64,000 nt of DNA from Haemophilus parainfluenzae (GTDB taxonomy: Bacteria; Pseudomonadota; Gammaproteobacteria; Enterobacterales; Pasteurellaceae). Position 1 is the first letter of the stretch. Each line of letters opens with the position of its first letter. A model generated the notes under the pieces. The model searched no databases and was not told where the DNA came from. It worked only from the letters and a program-made list of their open reading frames with translations. Shown piece after piece: positions 26,441 through 62,478 of this stretch. Location of the stretch: positions 124,001 through 188,000 of the forward strand of contig NZ_CP127167.1 of the NCBI RefSeq assembly GCF_036288925.1, read 5' to 3'. A program made the position numbers and the translations under genes.

Positions 26441-26496
26441 GTGCGGTCAGAAAAAATAGCGTTTTTATTGAATAGAAAGAAAACAAGGAGAAAAAA

Positions 26497-26640
26497 ATGT
26501 TAAAAAGAAAAACTTTCTTAAAGAAAAAAACATCAAGAGATATTTCAGCCTCACGCAACTTACGTTTAAGACGACTAAAACACCGCAAAGAGCAGCAATT
26601 TCAACGTCAGGCTTTACAATTTGTAATTCAAAACATTTAA
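26497..26640 (+). CDS. Small, very basic 47-residue protein of unknown function
   Basis: The ATG at 26497 follows a near-perfect AAGGAG at 6-7 nt spacing. The product begins MLKRKTFLKKKTSRDISASR and contains LRLRRLKHRKEQQF, so about a third of residues are Lys or Arg, then ends with a hydrophobic-aromatic tail (ALQFVIQNI). It is 56 bp after mltF on the same strand. The strong ribosome site and full-length open frame argue that it is real. Its charge suggests nucleic-acid or ribosome binding; this is inference only. Confidence 0.6.
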   Translation: MLKRKTFLKKKTSRDISASRNLRLRRLKHRKEQQFQRQALQFVIQNI

Positions 26641-26668
26641 AAAAAGGCGAACAATTATATTCGCCTTG
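26641..26668 (-). terminator. Terminator facing the lipoprotein 3' part
   Basis: AAGGCGAA and TTCGCCTT form a hairpin. On the minus strand it is followed by a T-run (complement of the A-run at 26638-26644), as expected for the minus-strand lipoprotein gene ending at 26699. Confidence 0.75.
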
Positions 26669-26698
26669 TGCTAATTATTGGTTAAAAATCATATAACA

Positions 26699-27500
26699 TC
26701 ATTCTTTAATGCCACCGAATGCTCCACGAGATTGATCTGCTTCATTAATAAATAACCCTGTCATTTCCTTGGCATTTTCACCAAAGAAACCTCCTTGGGT
26801 TTTGATACCATTTACTTCACCTACAAAGCTATTACCTGTGATTTTACCACCAAAATTCATACCTGGTACGGCATTAGCTTTTTCCGTAATATTAATATCA
26901 ATGACTTTATTAGCAAAATCAGCTGTAGCTTTCATTTCACTACGCTCACTATTACTTCCATCTTTTTGATAAGCTGCACCACCTTTATACTCCACCAATC
27001 CTGTTGTTGGGATTTGTGCTATAGCTGTCGGTAAGCCTTGTGCAAAGAAATATTGATTACCACTTAAGTTGTCAAAATATGTACCAAATGCACTAGCTTG
27101 AAAATTGCTATTACTTAAAATAGTTTGTCCTTCTTTACGAAGATTATATAAATCGTTATATTCTTCATAAGTCCATGGGTCAATATCCCCAGCTCTTCTC
27201 AAGATATCAATGTCAACTAATTTACCTGATTTATCAATTATTGTCAGATCTCGTATATCTCGAGTTAACGGACGATTTACATCGCTTCCTTCTGAGGCTA
27301 AAACGCCCCCAGAAATAGCATCCTTCATCTCACCATTAATGCCACCAAAGATCTTATCACTCAATGGAATTCTTGCCTTTTCATCAGCTTTTAGATTTTC
27401 TAGTTGCTTTAATCTTTCCTCTGCAGCTTTTTTAGCTTCCTCTGCAACTTTTTTGGCTTCCTCTGCTGATTTTTGGGCTTCCTCTGCAGCTTTTCTCTCG
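26699..27500 (-). pseudogene. 3' part of a TbpB-like surface lipoprotein gene, separated from its 5' part by inversion
   Basis: An open frame on the minus strand from the junction at 27500 to the stop at 26699 encodes 266 residues and lacks its own start and signal peptide. It begins with heptads EEAQKSA, EEAKKVA, EEAKKAA (27484-27422) and continues into a beta-barrel domain ending GGFFGENAKEMTGLFINEAD and then GAFGGIKE. This is the TbpB_B_D-type barrel of Slam-dependent surface lipoproteins. The matching N-terminus lies at 28749-29101 on the other strand. In the orientation given, the upstream sequence is the receptor 5' part in another frame, so this part is not expressed as the proper product. 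Confidence 0.85.
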
Positions 27501-28592
27501 GCTTTCCCATGGCATGAAATCTGCTCGTAGAGAAGCTCGCATAAAACGGCTATTCATACTCGTGTCCTGGATTTCAATTAAATCTTTTCCTATGTATGCA
27601 CTAAAATCAGAATTATAGCGATGTCCACCCTTATAATTTTTTGAGCCAATATTGGTTTTTTGAAAATCTAGTTCGGTCTTTAGGTAACTTAACCAGCGGC
27701 TATTTTCTGGAAAATATTCGTAAGCAACATTTGCATTATATCGTTTACTAATATCATCCGACTCCCGCCAAAGCCCTGCAAGTTGATAAGACTTTTCATC
27801 AACAAAATTATTTGCTTTTTGAGCGTTAAATGATGCACTTACACGTTGTGTCTGAGTAATAAAATAGCCAACTTTAGCTAAGTAGCTATGATTTTTATGA
27901 TGGGATGGATCAGGAATACCTCGAGCATTACCTAAAATATCTTGTCCCTTGCCTCTACTTTTCATTTCATGCCCATTGCGATAGGAATAGAGCAAAGTTG
28001 CATCAAATTTGTCATCTTTATAAGCCATACCTAAAGTGTGTGTCCATTCGCTATTTTTACTCGCATAACCGTTTTTAAGCAATACACCCCATTTTTTATT
28101 TGGTAGAATAATATCATCAGCACCTAAAGTGCGGTAATTTACTGAACCGCCTAATGATCCACTTCCTGCATTGAAAGAATCTGAACCACGCATAATATCA
28201 ATACCTTGTACTAATTCAGGGTCAATACTTAATCGTGAGCTATTAAAGTTACCATAACGTGCATAAAGTGAGTTTTCTTCTGATTCGGGCAAATTAACGC
28301 CATCAATACAGATTCCCACTCGATTCCCTTCAACACCACGCATTGCAAAACCTTTATTACGACGGCCATTATCGCTAATACCCACATCAGTGGCATAACG
28401 TACTAAGTCATAGTTATCAGAAATAAGTTCTTCTTGGATAGCTTTACGTGTCTTTTTTATTTGATTTGCTTTGACTTCAGAGGCATTAGCATTAACAGTA
28501 ATTGTATCTAATGTTGTTTGTTCTTCTGCGTAAGCTTGTAAAGTGAAGGCTACACAGAATGCACCTAAAGAAAGGAGAAATTTATGAGTCAT
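27432..28592 (-). pseudogene. hmbR: 5' part of an HmbR-like haemoglobin TonB-dependent receptor, truncated by inversion
   Basis: The ATG at 28592 opens a receptor with signal peptide MTHKFLLSLGAFCVAFTLQA-YA, a TonB-box-like segment (TLDTITVNA) and a plug domain. The segments DVGISDNGRRNKGFAMRGVE and YARYGNFNSSRLSIDPELV match neisserial HmbR closely as I recall it. Receptor sequence stops at codon 365 (CGA at 27498-27500). After that the frame reads EKSCRGSPKISRGSQKSCRG, which is the lipoprotein heptad DNA in the wrong frame, and ends at 27432. The missing barrel is at 29099-30307 on the plus strand. The product would be a plug with a partial barrel and cannot work. Confidence 0.9.
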
Positions 28593-28748
28593 ATTTTTAC
28601 CTGAAATTTTATCTAATTTAGTAGAATCCGGAGCGAAGTTTACAAAAGTTAAAGAAACCTTTCAATGGTATTGAAAATTATTTTTATTTCATTTAAATTG
28701 TGTAAAGTCATCATTTAGTCTAAAAAACAAGATAATAAGGATCTTTTT
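28593..28748. promoter_or_regulatory. Divergent promoter region of receptor and lipoprotein genes, with candidate Fur site
   Basis: This 156-bp AT-rich gap separates the two divergent 5' ends and lies inside the inverted segment, so each gene keeps its own promoter in either orientation. The 19 bp at 28667-28685 (GGTATTGAAAATTATTTTT) match the Fur consensus at 13 of 19 positions. Iron repression would suit a haemoglobin receptor. Fur binding is inferred, not shown. Confidence 0.5.
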
Positions 28749-29126
28749 ATGAACAAAATTAAACTTTCCATCATTGCGCTTTCATGTGTTATGGCATTAG
28801 GCGCTTGTTCTTCTAGCTCAAAAGGTGGTACAGATAATTCAGAGCAGCTTCGACAAGCTGAGACTGAATTAAATCAAAGAATCACGGAAGCGAATAAGAA
28901 AGCTGAAGCAGCTACAAAAAAAGCTGAGGACTCTTTAAAAAAAGCAGAAGAGTCTGTGAAAAAAGCGGATGAGTCTGTGAAAAAAGCAGATGAGTCTATA
29001 AAAAAAGCAGAAGTAGCAATCAAGGTAGCTCAAAGCAATGGCAATCAAACTGAAGAAGAGAAAAAAGCAACTGAAGCTGCGATAAAAGCAGCTGAAGTCG
29101 ATTCGGTAGTCATCAATTTACGCTAA
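28749..29126 (+). pseudogene. 5' part of the surface lipoprotein gene, truncated by inversion
   Basis: ATG 28749 follows AAGGAT. A lipoprotein signal (MNKIKLSIIALSCVMALGAC, lipobox LGAC) is followed by a long charged helix with five 7-residue repeats of the KKAEESV type. Lipoprotein sequence ends at GTC (29097-29099); beyond the CGA at 29099-29101 the DNA is receptor 3' sequence, read out of frame as DSVVINLR before TAA at 29124-29126. The natural continuation is at 27499-26699 on the minus strand. The present product would be a 125-residue anchored stalk with no ligand-binding barrel. Confidence 0.87.
28917..29021 (+). repeat. Five tandem 21-bp repeats coding for heptads
   Basis: Five consecutive 21-bp units (starting at 28917, 28938, 28959, 28980 and 29001) of the form AAAAAAGCAGATGAGTCTGTG encode KKAEDSL, KKAEESV, KKADESV, KKADESI and KKAEVAI. 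They keep frame, so copy-number change would alter stalk length without a frameshift. Confidence 0.85.
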
Positions 29127-30307
29127 GAACGGGTATTTCACAAAAAGATTTTGATAATCGCAATGATCATGAATATCCCAATGTAGGTGACAATGGTAGT
29201 AGTGCTAAAGATAGTGAATCTATTCAACATCCAGTCAGAACCCGTTCATTTTTCGCTCAATTACAAGATCATGTCATGTGGAATGATATTTTTTCTAGTC
29301 AATTAGGTATTCGTTATGACTGGGATGAATTAGTACCGCAAGATTTAAAAGCCTTTTGCCGAGCTTGTAGCCGTAAACCCGCATCAAATACCTTTCAAAG
29401 TTTAAGTGGCTCGTTTGGATTAGAGGCTCAGCTTAATGATATTTGGAAGATCGGCTATAACATTTCTACTGGCTTTCGCATTCCAACCGCTTCAGAAATG
29501 TACTTCTCTTTTGAACATCCCTCAGGTAACTGGAGACCAAACCCTGATTTAAAAGCTGAACAAGCATTAAATCAATCTATCTATATCCAAGCAGAGTATC
29601 AATTAGGTACATTTGGGCTGAATTTTTATCACACACATTATAAAAATTTCTTAACTGAGCAAGAGTCAACTTATAAAAAACGTAACCCGTATTACAATGC
29701 CTATAGTGCAAGTTATGGTCAACAAGCTTATTACACAACGATTGCCCAACAAGCTATAAACATTGATCAAGCGCGTATCTCTGGTATTGAATTCACGAGT
29801 AAAGTTAATTTAGATCAGATTATTTCTGTAATTCCACAAGGTTGGAAATTTACAGCAAATCTCGGTTATGCAAAAGGGAAACTAAGTGGTACTGAGGCTA
29901 GCCTACTTTCTATCCAACCAATCAAAGTAATTTTAGGAATTGGCTATGAAGATCCAAATGATCTCTGGGGAGTTAACGTCAAAGCGAGTTATCTTGGTGC
30001 TAAAAAAGCTAAAGATGCCCAAATAGTACAATATTCAACTAACTTTGTTAGAGAAGTAAAAACTTACCCTTATCTTAATAATTCGGCAGTATTATTTGAT
30101 TTGTATGGTTTCTATAAAATCAATCAAAATATTACACTCCGAGCAGGACTTTATAACTTATTTAATCGCAAATATCACACTTGGGATACCCTACGTGGTA
30201 TTAACAAAATAAGTACGACTGATTCAGTTGATAAAGAAGGGAAAGGTTTAGAGCGTTTTTATGCGCCAGGGCGTAATTTCGCAGCATCTGTTGAAATTCA
30301 TTTTTAA
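29099..30307 (+). pseudogene. hmbR: 3' part of the HmbR-like receptor gene (beta barrel), separated from its 5' part
   Basis: An open frame from CGA (29099) to TAA (30307) gives 401 residues after the Arg codon. It starts FGSHQFTLRTGISQKDFDNR and covers the rest of the barrel, with SGFRIPTASE-like and SLRGINKISTT-like segments and the C-terminal signature ending in EIHF. The text resembles HmbR throughout (for example GYAKGKLSGTEASLL). An internal ATG at 29276 exists, but without signal peptide or plug no functional receptor can result. Fused to codon 365 of the minus-strand part it yields a 766-residue receptor. Confidence 0.9.
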
Positions 30308-30327
30308 TTCATTATTTCCTTAATAAG

Positions 30328-30357
30328 AAAGGGCGAACATCATGTTCGCCCTTTTAT
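30328..30357. terminator. Bidirectional terminator between receptor 3' part and raiA
   Basis: AAAGGGCGAACAT pairs with ATGTTCGCCCTTT around a minimal loop, with T-rich sequence on the right and A-rich on the left, so it can serve both convergent genes. Confidence 0.85.
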
Positions 30358-30371
30358 TTACTTACTATTCT

Positions 30372-30695
30372 TTATTTTTCAAAAGAATCTTTCAAACGTT
30401 CTTCTGCTCGACGGGATTCACCTTTATGTTGAAGTTTATTCAATTGACGTTCCAATTTTTCTTCTACTTCATTGATCGCTTTATACATATCATCAGCGGT
30501 TGCAGTCGCAAGCAGATTACCTAATGGGGTTCCAATTGAAGCCTCTACAGAAAAGCCGTTTGGTACTTTACTTAAAACAAAGTGCGGGCTAATCAGTTGA
30601 GTGTGCCATTTCTCTAATTTTGCAAGTCTGCCCTCCACATGTTCACGAATTGCGGGGGTGATTTCCATTTGTTTACTTGTGATATTGAGTGTCAT
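30372..30695 (-). CDS. raiA: Ribosome-associated inhibitor RaiA (YfiA), HPF family
   Basis: A 107-residue protein of the short HPF/YfiA family: [20 protein letters not shown], then a basic face and the helix [18 protein letters not shown]. Such proteins bind the 30S decoding centre in stationary phase and block translation. The C-terminal tail after the last helix ([16 protein letters not shown]) is compatible with YfiA rather than the shorter HPF. It is a single-gene unit between two hairpins. Confidence 0.9.
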
Positions 30696-30936: not shown

Positions 30937-32307
30937 TTAGGCTAATTCATCTTGATCACGTTGTGCTGCTTTTAAACGTTCAAAGTAATCTTTGGTTTCT
31001 GAAATAATCTCTTTGCGTAAACCAATTAATGCGACTAAGTTTGGAAAAGCCATTAAACCATTCACGATATCCGCTAGAATCCAAATTAAATCTAAGGTGA
31101 GGAATGAACCCGCCCCGACTAAAACAATAAACACGAAACGATAAAATTTAATACCACGAATACCGACTAAGTAAAGAAAACAACGCTCACCATAGTAACA
31201 CCAACCTAAAATTGTGGTGAAAGCAAAGAATAATAAACCAACGGTTACAATGGTTGCACCAATTGATGCGCCTAATCCCTGTGCAAAAGCATAGTTAGTC
31301 ACACTGGCTCCAGAAAGTTCAGGGTTACTCCATGCCCCCGTAATAACAAGTACTAATCCCGTCATCGTACATACAATGATGGTATCTAAAAATGTCCCTG
31401 TCATCGAAATTAAACCTTGACGAACGGGCTCTTTTGTTTGCGCTGCCGCAGCAGCAATAGGCGCACTCCCTAAACCTGATTCATTTGAGAAAATACCGCG
31501 TGCAACCCCCGATTGAATCACCTTCATTACTGTAAAGCCAACTGCGCCACCTAAAGCTGCTTGAGGGTTAAATGCACTGTGAATAATTAATGTGATCGCA
31601 GCGGGCAGCTTATCGTAATTAACCACTAAGATAATAATTGAGGTCGCCACATAGCCGATTGCCATAAAAGGCACAATCACTGAAGAAGCTGTCGCAATAC
31701 GTCTTACACCACCGAGAATAATCATCGCGACCAATACGGTCACCACTGTTGCAGTAATAATAACGGGTACATTGAATGTGTCTTGCATCGCATGCGTAAT
31801 GGCATTTATTTGAGGGAAGGTACCAATACCGAAAAAGGCCACTAATACCCCAAAGAGCGCAAATAATTTGGCTAACCATTTAATACCAAGACCACGCTCG
31901 ATGTAATACATTGGACCACCCGCCATAAAACCGTATTTATCTCGTACTCGATATTTCACCGCAAGCAAACATTCCGCATATTTGGTTGCCATTCCAAAGA
32001 AAGCAACCAGCCACATCCAAAAAATCGCACCTGGGCCTCCAGCTTGTACTGCAGTGGCTACACCCACGATATTCCCAGTTCCTATAGTCGCTGCTAATGC
32101 GGTACAAAGTGCCGCAAAAGAAGAAACATCTCCCTTGCCTTTATTCGCTCCACGAGCAAATAAATAGCCCAATGCACGAGGCAAATAACGAATTTGCAAG
32201 AAACCTAAACGAAGAGTGAGGTAAAGTCCAGTTCCGGACAATAGAATAAGTAGGGGCGGTCCCCATACAAAACTGCTAATAGCAGATAAGGTTGTCTGTA
32301 ATGACAT
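30937..32307 (-). CDS. alsT: Sodium:alanine/glycine symporter (AGCS family)
   Basis: A 456-residue inner-membrane transporter with about 11 helices. The start is ATG 32307 (MSLQTTLSAISSFVWGPPLL), preceded by GAGGAA; the longer frame to 32475 runs into riboswitch sequence and is not coding. Family features include GTGNIVGVATAVQAGGPGA and SNESGLGSAPIAAAAAQTKE. Members carry alanine or glycine with Na+. The tandem glycine riboswitch upstream strongly implies glycine as a physiological substrate. Confidence 0.93.
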   Translation of the reverse strand: MSLQTTLSAISSFVWGPPLLILLSGTGLYLTLRLGFLQIRYLPRALGYLFARGANKGKGDVSSFAALCTALAATIGTGNIVGVATAVQAGGPGAIFWMWLVAFFGMATKYAECLLAVKYRVRDKYGFMAGGPMYYIERGLGIKWLAKLFALFGVLVAFFGIGTFPQINAITHAMQDTFNVPVIITATVVTVLVAMIILGGVRRIATASSVIVPFMAIGYVATSIIILVVNYDKLPAAITLIIHSAFNPQAALGGAVGFTVMKVIQSGVARGIFSNESGLGSAPIAAAAAQTKEPVRQGLISMTGTFLDTIIVCTMTGLVLVITGAWSNPELSGASVTNYAFAQGLGASIGATIVTVGLLFFAFTTILGWCYYGERCFLYLVGIRGIKFYRFVFIVLVGAGSFLTLDLIWILADIVNGLMAFPNLVALIGLRKEIISETKDYFERLKAAQRDQDELA

Positions 32308-32395
32308 TGATGATTCCTCGTCGTTTAAAATACAAATAAATTCGACAAGGAGACAAGAAGAATCCCGATAGAAATATTTTTGATTATACCGATTG

Positions 32396-32610
32396 TCTTT
32401 TGCCCCTGTCCTTTTGCCTGAGCGTTTGGAAAACAATCGAAAAATCGACCGCTCTTTTGCGCCTTCGGCGTCCATTTACATCAATAAAATGCAATGGATC
32501 TCTCCAAGGGTTCGTCCAGTAACAGTCCCTGCAATCTTACGATTGCGCCTGAAAGATTTTACCTCGTCGGCGTAGGGTCAATTCCCTACTCTCCAGCTAC
32601 CTTCTTCCGA
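32396..32610 (-). promoter_or_regulatory. Tandem glycine riboswitch controlling the symporter gene
   Basis: Read on the minus strand there are two copies of the gcvT aptamer pattern. The first has GCTGGAGAGTAGGG, then GCCGACGAGGTAAA, CTTTCAGGCGCAA and a closing GGGACTGTTACTGGACG. The second has CCCTTGGAGAGATCC, GACGCCGAAGGCGCAAAAG and CTCAGGCAAAAGGACAGGGG. The pair ends about 90 nt before the symporter start. I cannot tell from the sequence whether glycine turns the gene on or off; no clear terminator is visible between aptamer and gene, so control may be at translation. Confidence 0.9.
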
Positions 32611-62160: not shown

Positions 62161-62478
62161 TTAAAAGTACCGTGTCCTTTTCAATAATACTTGACGAAAG
62201 TGCCTTTCAAGCGTAACATTCGCCCGATTTTTTAACGAGAAGGACACACACTTTGGACAGTCATAGTCGATACCGAATATCGCTTTAGACTCTCGCCTCT
62301 TATCAGCGAGAGTTCGCTGGTAATCAACTTACCTTTCTTCGGCATCTTTTATCGAACGAAACCCATTTTTAAAATTTTAAAACATGAAAAATTTGACCGC
62401 ACTTTTCCCTAGTGCTCATTTCGTTTGATCTTTTTTGTTCACAGTTAGATCTTCATAATCCCAAAAGGAGTATGACCA
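62161..62478 (+). promoter_or_regulatory. Structured leader upstream of corA
   Basis: This 318-bp region has nested RNA structure. GTGTCCTTTTC (62172-62182) pairs with GAGAAGGACAC (62237-62247), enclosing a smaller stem (62190-62211). ACTCTCGC (62289-62296) pairs perfectly with GCGAGAGT (62306-62313). A possible leader peptide begins at TTG 62253 with AAGGA 8 nt upstream and reads DSHSRYRISL, ending at TAG 62286-62288 just before the last hairpin. Its ribosome site lies in the 3' arm of the first stem. A second mini-ORF (62384-62428, MKNLTALFPSAHFV) contains a USS. A leader peptide controls Salmonella corA; a similar role here is inference. Confidence 0.5.

What the first reader, a model, noticed from the sequence alone, without database searches (positions are those of the whole stretch)
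26699..30307. Reciprocal inversion has split an hmbR-like receptor gene and a surface lipoprotein gene; flipping 1.6 kb restores both
Seen directly: the minus-strand receptor 5' part ends at CGA (27500-27498) and runs on into lipoprotein sequence in a wrong frame. The plus-strand lipoprotein 5' part reaches GTC-GA at 29097-29101 and runs into receptor sequence in a wrong frame. Joining receptor codon 365 (CGA) to TTC at 29102 gives an open frame of 766 residues (PWESR then FGSHQFTLRTG). Joining GTC at 29097-29099 to GAG at 27499 gives 383 residues (KAAEV then ERKAAEEAQ). Both frames are restored by one flip, which a chance pair of mutations would not do. The restored receptor junction also keeps the spacing I recall for neisserial HmbR. 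In the given orientation both genes are off, and each 5' part keeps its own promoter. This could be a reversible ON/OFF switch or a one-time event.
Basis: partly seen in the sequence, partly recalled or inferred. Interest (0 to 1): 0.87.

Follow-up and report, generated by a model that had tools for sequence, protein, structure and literature searches.

The report
Inversion breaking two iron-uptake genes
A 1.6-kb piece of this Haemophilus chromosome has flipped over and cut two neighbouring outer-surface genes in half, most likely an ordinary one-off accident rather than a built-in on/off switch.

Summary
Two genes are each present as two open pieces on opposite strands, and a segment of about 1.59 kb (window 27505-29094) lies reversed relative to relatives. 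A close relative (97-99% identical here) and four more distant ones hold both genes in one frame, divergently transcribed. Among 62 family genomes with both receptor halves at the threshold used, only this one has them on opposite strands. The inversion is therefore derived and seen once.

The breakpoints share three bases (seven with one mismatch). There is no inverted repeat beyond chance. The genome's two serine recombinases lie over a megabase away, and none of its eight tyrosine recombinases is in the window; other recombinase families were not searched. Nothing found supports a programmed switch. The best reading is a recent, one-time inversion at microhomology that inactivated a haemoglobin/transferrin-family TonB receptor and a TbpB-like lipoprotein. 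Two other TonB-receptor genes of this genome also have interrupted frames.

Not excluded: an undetected reversible switch, or an assembly or culture artefact; no reads or other strains were available. The halves were not joined in any call.

The parts
26699..27501 (-). 3' part of a lipoprotein gene with a TbpB-type barrel, in its original place
   Evidence: PF01298 4.6e-17; NF041636 below its cut-off; 98% identical to the G003 gene
27502..27504 (.). left breakpoint of the inversion, inside CTT
   Evidence: base-by-base comparison with G003
27505..29094 (.). inverted segment (about 1.59 kb) holding both 5' gene parts and the shared intergenic region
   Evidence: blastn to G003, G004 (= L002), G080 (= L003) and G002 and G032: opposite in direction to both flanks
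27505..28592 (-). 5' part (signal peptide by eye, plug, first barrel part) of a TonB-dependent haemoglobin/transferrin/lactoferrin-family receptor gene
   Evidence: PF07715 3.8e-14; TIGR01786 profile positions 16-307, below the cut-off as a half; 99% identical to G003
28593..28748 (.). shared intergenic region between the starts of both genes
   Evidence: sequence; promoter-like matches only
28749..29094 (+). 5' part of the lipoprotein gene (lipobox by eye, charged repeat region)
   Evidence: NF040598 match below its cut-off; same first 30 residues as the intact G003 lipoprotein
29095..29097 (.). right breakpoint of the inversion, inside AAG
   Evidence: base-by-base comparison with G003
29098..30307 (+). 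3' part of the receptor gene (rest of the beta-barrel), in its original place
   Evidence: PF00593 6.4e-37; TIGR01786 profile positions 350-719, below the cut-off as a half; 99% identical to G003
27416..27494 (.). 21-base tandem repeats (seven-residue units) of the lipoprotein, left flank
28899..29097 (.). 21-base tandem repeats of the lipoprotein (arrays 28899-29011 and 29048-29097), right end of the inverted segment

Best explanation
A conservative inversion of about 1.59 kb, with its ends in a three-base microhomology inside the coding sequences of two divergent genes, disrupted both genes in one event. Shown: intact divergent pairs in relatives, reversed middle segment, breakpoints, no inverted repeat beyond chance. 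Inferred: the event was a one-time, non-programmed accident (template switching or end joining at microhomology); it is recent, because all four pieces are still open and 97-99% identical to a relative; it abolishes both products. It would persist because a Haemophilus of the parainfluenzae group, which does not need external haem (recalled), tolerates losing one iron or haem receptor.
For: Three-block alignment with the middle block reversed against G003, G004 (= L002), G080 (= L003) and G002 and G032. Both genes in one frame in G003. Receptor halves on opposite strands in 1 of 62 genomes, this one. Close lipoprotein relatives lie on the strand opposite to the receptor, divergent, in 5 of 5 other genomes that have one. 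Around the two ends 11 of 41 bases match in inverted register, reached by 11343 of 20000 random pairs; the longest exact inverted match within 60 bases of both ends is 8 and out of register, reached by 518 of 2000 random pairs. None of the 2 serine and 8 tyrosine recombinases found lies in the window. Two other TonB-receptor genes of this genome are interrupted too.
Against: Both ends are exact to the base, with no loss or gain apparent against G003, and the shared core is 7 bases with one mismatch (7 of 11 identities, reached by only 247 of 20000 random pairs): a little more order than blind breakage needs. One paper reports that all experimentally confirmed spontaneous rearrangements in Salmonella had repeats at the ends, with a cut-off for inversions, deduced from its verification, of 12 bp or more (PMC3411829, passages); this one has far less. 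The pieces show no clear decay. No reads or sister strains could be examined.
Confidence: 0.77

Rival explanations
1. A reversible switch: a recombinase flips the segment back and forth so that receptor and lipoprotein are switched on and off together.
For: The segment holds both gene starts, both genes code for outer-surface proteins (typical targets of phase variation, recalled), the crossover is exact to the base, and all four pieces remain open and nearly identical to a relative.
Against: No inverted repeat beyond chance, whereas invertons are described as flanked by 10-40-base inverted repeats (PMC11892184, passages). No match to a recalled Hin/Gin-type site in the window at up to 3 mismatches. 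AAGYCGA occurs 18 times in the window against 14.5 expected, reached by 22 of 100 shuffles. No serine or tyrosine recombinase in the window; other invertase families (for example Piv-type) were not searched. The reversed order occurs in 1 of 62 genomes.
Confidence: 0.08
2. An artefact: misassembly, or a variant that arose in the sequenced culture and is absent from the species.
For: Only one assembly carries it; no reads were available; the junctions have only three bases of exact microhomology.
Against: The genome is a single contig of 2.23 Mb, given as 100% complete. No long inverted repeat exists at the ends that could mislead an assembler. Two separate, mutually consistent junctions would have to be false.
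Confidence: 0.13
3. The present arrangement is ancestral and the pieces are separate genes.
For: Each piece is open by itself.
Against: 61 of 61 other family genomes with both receptor halves at the threshold have them on one strand, in order; the pieces match adjoining ranges of TIGR01786 (16-307 and 350-719).
Confidence: 0.01

Closest known systems
TonB-dependent haemoglobin/transferrin/lactoferrin receptor subfamily (TIGR01786; solved relatives PhuR and TbpA)
   Same: The intact G003 orthologue passes the curated cut-off (530 against 323.75 bits); its best solved relatives by sequence are PhuR and TbpA.
   Different: In the window the gene is in two pieces on opposite strands. The ligand is untested, and HmbR itself was not compared.
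Slam-dependent surface lipoproteins with a TbpB-type barrel (TbpB, LbpB, HpuA)
   Same: The C-terminal part matches PF01298. A paper reports TonB-receptor genes in 120 of 185 Slam clusters with a lipoprotein gene (PMC5449769, passages).
   Different: One barrel match after a long charged repeat region; below the curated cut-off of NF041636 even in intact G003 (51.3 against 80 bits); the three SlipAM (PF04575) genes found in this genome lie elsewhere.
Invertons (site-specific DNA inversion in phase variation)
   Same: A reversed segment with gene starts inside it, in genes of surface proteins.
   Different: No flanking inverted repeats, no serine or tyrosine recombinase in the window, no second orientation seen.
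Spontaneous inversions at short homologies in bacteria (PMC3411829, passages)
   Same: Inversion with shared bases at its ends.
   Different: The shared bases here are fewer than the 12 bp or more deduced there for true inversions.

Membership tests
Programmed inversion (inverton) | inverted repeats of roughly 10-40 bases at the ends | tested here: not met
   (25 of 27 pairs shown); definition from passages of PMC11892184
Programmed inversion (inverton) | a recombinase that acts on the segment | tested here: inconclusive
   none of the 2 PF00239 and 8 PF00589 matches in the genome lies in the window; other recombinase families were not searched, and a distant recombinase acting in trans is not excluded
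Programmed inversion (inverton) | both orientations in one population or among strains | not testable with these tools
   one genome per species and no reads; among species only this genome has the reversed order
TonB-dependent haemoglobin/transferrin/lactoferrin receptor (TIGR01786) | whole protein above the curated cut-off | tested here: met
   met by the intact G003 orthologue; the window's halves are each below it
HmbR proper | haemoglobin binding and orthology to neisserial HmbR | not tested
   no HmbR sequence was compared; no paper held has both 'Haemophilus parainfluenzae' and 'hmbR'
Slam-dependent surface lipoprotein (NF041636) | score above the curated cut-off | tested here: not met
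   50.3 bits for the window's 3' part and 51.3 for intact G003, against 80
TbpB-type barrel (PF01298) | barrel domain above the gathering score | tested here: met
   63.2 against 26 bits
Surface lipoprotein | lipobox at the N terminus | tested here: inconclusive
   the sequence reads MALGACSSS, judged by eye; no lipobox predictor was run

The most novel reading that the evidence does not exclude
The segment flips reversibly without recognisable inverted repeats, through the short AAGYCGA core or a recombinase acting in trans, so that a receptor and its lipoprotein partner are switched off and on together by cutting both coding sequences at once.
Probability: 0.06. Interest if true: 0.75.

Novelty: new member of a known kind. 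Interest (0 to 1): 0.3.

Why it matters
It is a clean example of one rearrangement removing two divergent, probably cooperating surface genes at once. Annotation would probably list it as unrelated short ORFs or pseudogenes (inference). It also shows that gene loss by inversion need not leave inverted repeats, which the inverton search seen starts from. If it did prove reversible, such searches would be missing a class of switches.

Tried and rejected
Rejected: inverted repeats as the cause. The longest pair (I1, 27424-27454 with 28896-28926, 71%) is made of the lipoprotein's own repeats, now on opposite strands because of the inversion, and lies at neither breakpoint. Rejected: a Hin/Gin-type recombination site in the window (consensus recalled, no match, 0.09 expected). 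Held unlikely: the two serine recombinases as invertases of this segment; they lie at 1.29-1.30 Mb, in a stretch that also holds a gene that by eye reads as a TEM-type beta-lactamase and others that by eye look like conjugative-element genes. Not tried: other recombinase families. Inconclusive: base changes since the split from G003, polarised with three outgroups (L002, L003, G002, pieces only, codons next to the breakpoints left out; 361, 401, 114 and 262 codons). Receptor: 6 non-synonymous and 6 synonymous on the window's lineage, 3 and 7 on G003's, 1 and 4 unresolved. Lipoprotein: 3 and 1, 9 and 5, 4 and 7. Changes are counted per base and the alignment is poor in the repeats, so this does not date the event. 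Led nowhere: one junction pattern in viral contigs (0 matches), a protein search there (none), plasmids (none); the phage and E. coli collections were not searched. A paper on gene-altering programmed inversions (identifier recalled) is not held. Searches failed on a wrong frame and were repeated.

Full report
What was checked. The window is G000:C1:124001-188000 of a single-contig genome of 2,228,071 bases. The closest named record for the receptor's 5' part in genome contigs is titled Haemophilus parainfluenzae (L002, 92% identity over 364 residues), so a Haemophilus of that group, family Pasteurellaceae, is inferred.

The four pieces. The minus strand holds the 3' part of a lipoprotein gene (from 26699) and the 5' part of a TonB-dependent receptor (28592 down to about 27500). 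The plus strand holds the 5' part of the lipoprotein (from 28749) and the 3' part of the receptor (to 30307). Family scans of the pieces taken apart give plug and barrel domains for the receptor and a TbpB-type barrel for the lipoprotein. The receptor pieces match adjoining ranges of TIGR01786, positions 16-307 and 350-719, each below the cut-off for a whole protein.

Comparison with relatives. G003 aligns to 26486-30598 in three long blocks, the middle one reversed, at 97.5, 97.9 and 99.1% identity. In G003 the receptor is one frame of 766 aa and the lipoprotein one frame of 376 aa, on opposite strands. The reversed middle block is also seen against L002, L003 and G002 and G032. L002 and G004, and L003 and G080, show the same letters at the stretches printed and are counted once. 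Of 140 family genomes searched at E <= 1e-60, 63 have the receptor's 3' half and 63 the 5' half; 62 have both (G008 has only the 3' half and G036 only the 5' half at that threshold, and were dropped from the count). In 61 of 62 both halves lie on one strand, in order, with starts at most 2500 bases apart; the exception is the window's genome. Some of the 61 have stops inside (G018, G130). A close lipoprotein relative (70% identity or more) was found in 6 of 140 genomes. In the five other than G000 it lies on the strand opposite to the receptor, divergent from it.

Breakpoints. No base appears lost or gained. Around these points three bases are shared exactly, and seven with one mismatch. Three or more shared bases occur in 13057 of 200000 random pairs of points nearby; 7 of 11 identities occur in 247 of 20000, so the small core is somewhat better than chance; over 41 bases the similarity is at chance, 11343 of 20000. 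The longest exact inverted match within 60 bases of both ends is 8 bases and out of register, reached by 518 of 2000 random pairs. These controls were chosen after the ends were known.

Is it a switch? Invertons are described as flanked by inverted repeats of 10-40 bases (PMC11892184, passages); this locus has none. Two serine recombinases were found in the genome, both near 1.29-1.30 Mb, and eight tyrosine recombinases, none in the window; other recombinase families were not searched. A review of phase variation (PMC11868660, passages, 12 of 30 places) names H. influenzae phase variation by simple sequence repeats and RecA-mediated capsule changes; the passages seen contain no case like this one. 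Searches for print on inversion and phase variation with H. parainfluenzae (3 papers, listing only), on hmbR with it (none) and on split, divergent or invertible receptor genes (10 papers, listing only) showed no title or abstract start that reports this arrangement. That is no proof of absence, since the library holds open-licence papers only and these papers were not read.

How it most likely arose. A single conservative inversion at microhomology is the simplest account. A study in Salmonella found repeats at the ends of all its confirmed spontaneous rearrangements and deduced a cut-off of 12 bp or more for true inversions (PMC3411829, passages). The shared sequence here is shorter, which counts somewhat against an ordinary repeat-mediated route and leaves the enzymology open. 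The event looks recent because the pieces are open and 97-99% identical to G003; counts of base changes are too few to date it.

What is lost. The intact G003 receptor passes the cut-off of TIGR01786 (530 against 323.75 bits), and its best solved relatives by sequence are PhuR and TbpA. The lipoprotein has a TbpB-type barrel but does not pass the Slam-lipoprotein cut-off even in G003. TonB receptors were reported in 120 of 185 Slam clusters with a lipoprotein gene (PMC5449769, passages), which makes a joint role in iron or haem uptake plausible; it is inferred. That both products are lost is also inferred: past the breakpoints the receptor's first part runs on to a 386-aa ORF (about 364 of them its own) and the lipoprotein's to a 125-aa ORF (about 116 its own), both then stopping.

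Wider picture. The same genome has two further TonB-receptor genes with interrupted frames. One is in pieces of 184 and 540 aa where G003 has 777 aa; the only indel in its alignment to G003 is six bases, so the interruption does not look like a frameshift. The other is in pieces of 272 and 508 aa next to transposase-like ORFs (by eye). A receptor of G008 is also interrupted. Loss of single TonB receptors is thus not confined to this locus, which fits an ordinary, tolerated loss.

Verdict. Real inversion, most likely a one-time gene-breaking event (0.77). A reversible switch is unlikely (0.08), an artefact possible (0.13).

Noticed in passing
G000:C1:906000-912500 (L084 1639-3888, minus strand): Another TonB-receptor gene of the same genome has an interrupted frame (184 and 540 aa pieces; 777 aa in G003). 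The only indel in its alignment to G003 is six bases, so it does not look like a frameshift.
   Followed up: partly
G000:C1:1758500-1764000 (L085 1533-3951, minus strand): A third TonB-receptor gene in two pieces (272 and 508 aa), next to two ORFs that by eye look like an IS3-type transposase pair.
   Followed up: no
G000:C1:1290000-1306000 (L087): Both serine recombinases found in the genome lie here, with a gene that by eye reads as a TEM-type beta-lactamase beside one of them and genes that by eye look like parts of a conjugative element. Described only.
   Followed up: no
G008:C2:1020575-1022592: The receptor relative in a congener is broken into pieces, with a stop inside.
   Followed up: no
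L011 295-1392 (G002), L064 (G032), L002 3876-4841: The repeat region of the lipoprotein relatives varies greatly: Ser/Asn-rich repeats in G002, long Ala/Glu/Lys repeats in G032, short in L002. It looks like a fast-changing surface stalk.
   Followed up: no
window 32396-32517, minus strand: Glycine riboswitch (RF00504) overlapping the start of an ORF at 30937-32475 that by eye looks like a sodium/alanine symporter; the real start is probably further down.
   Followed up: no
window 62211-62317, plus strand: Match to Aggregatibacter sRNA 54 (RF02899, 85.7 bits).
   Followed up: no
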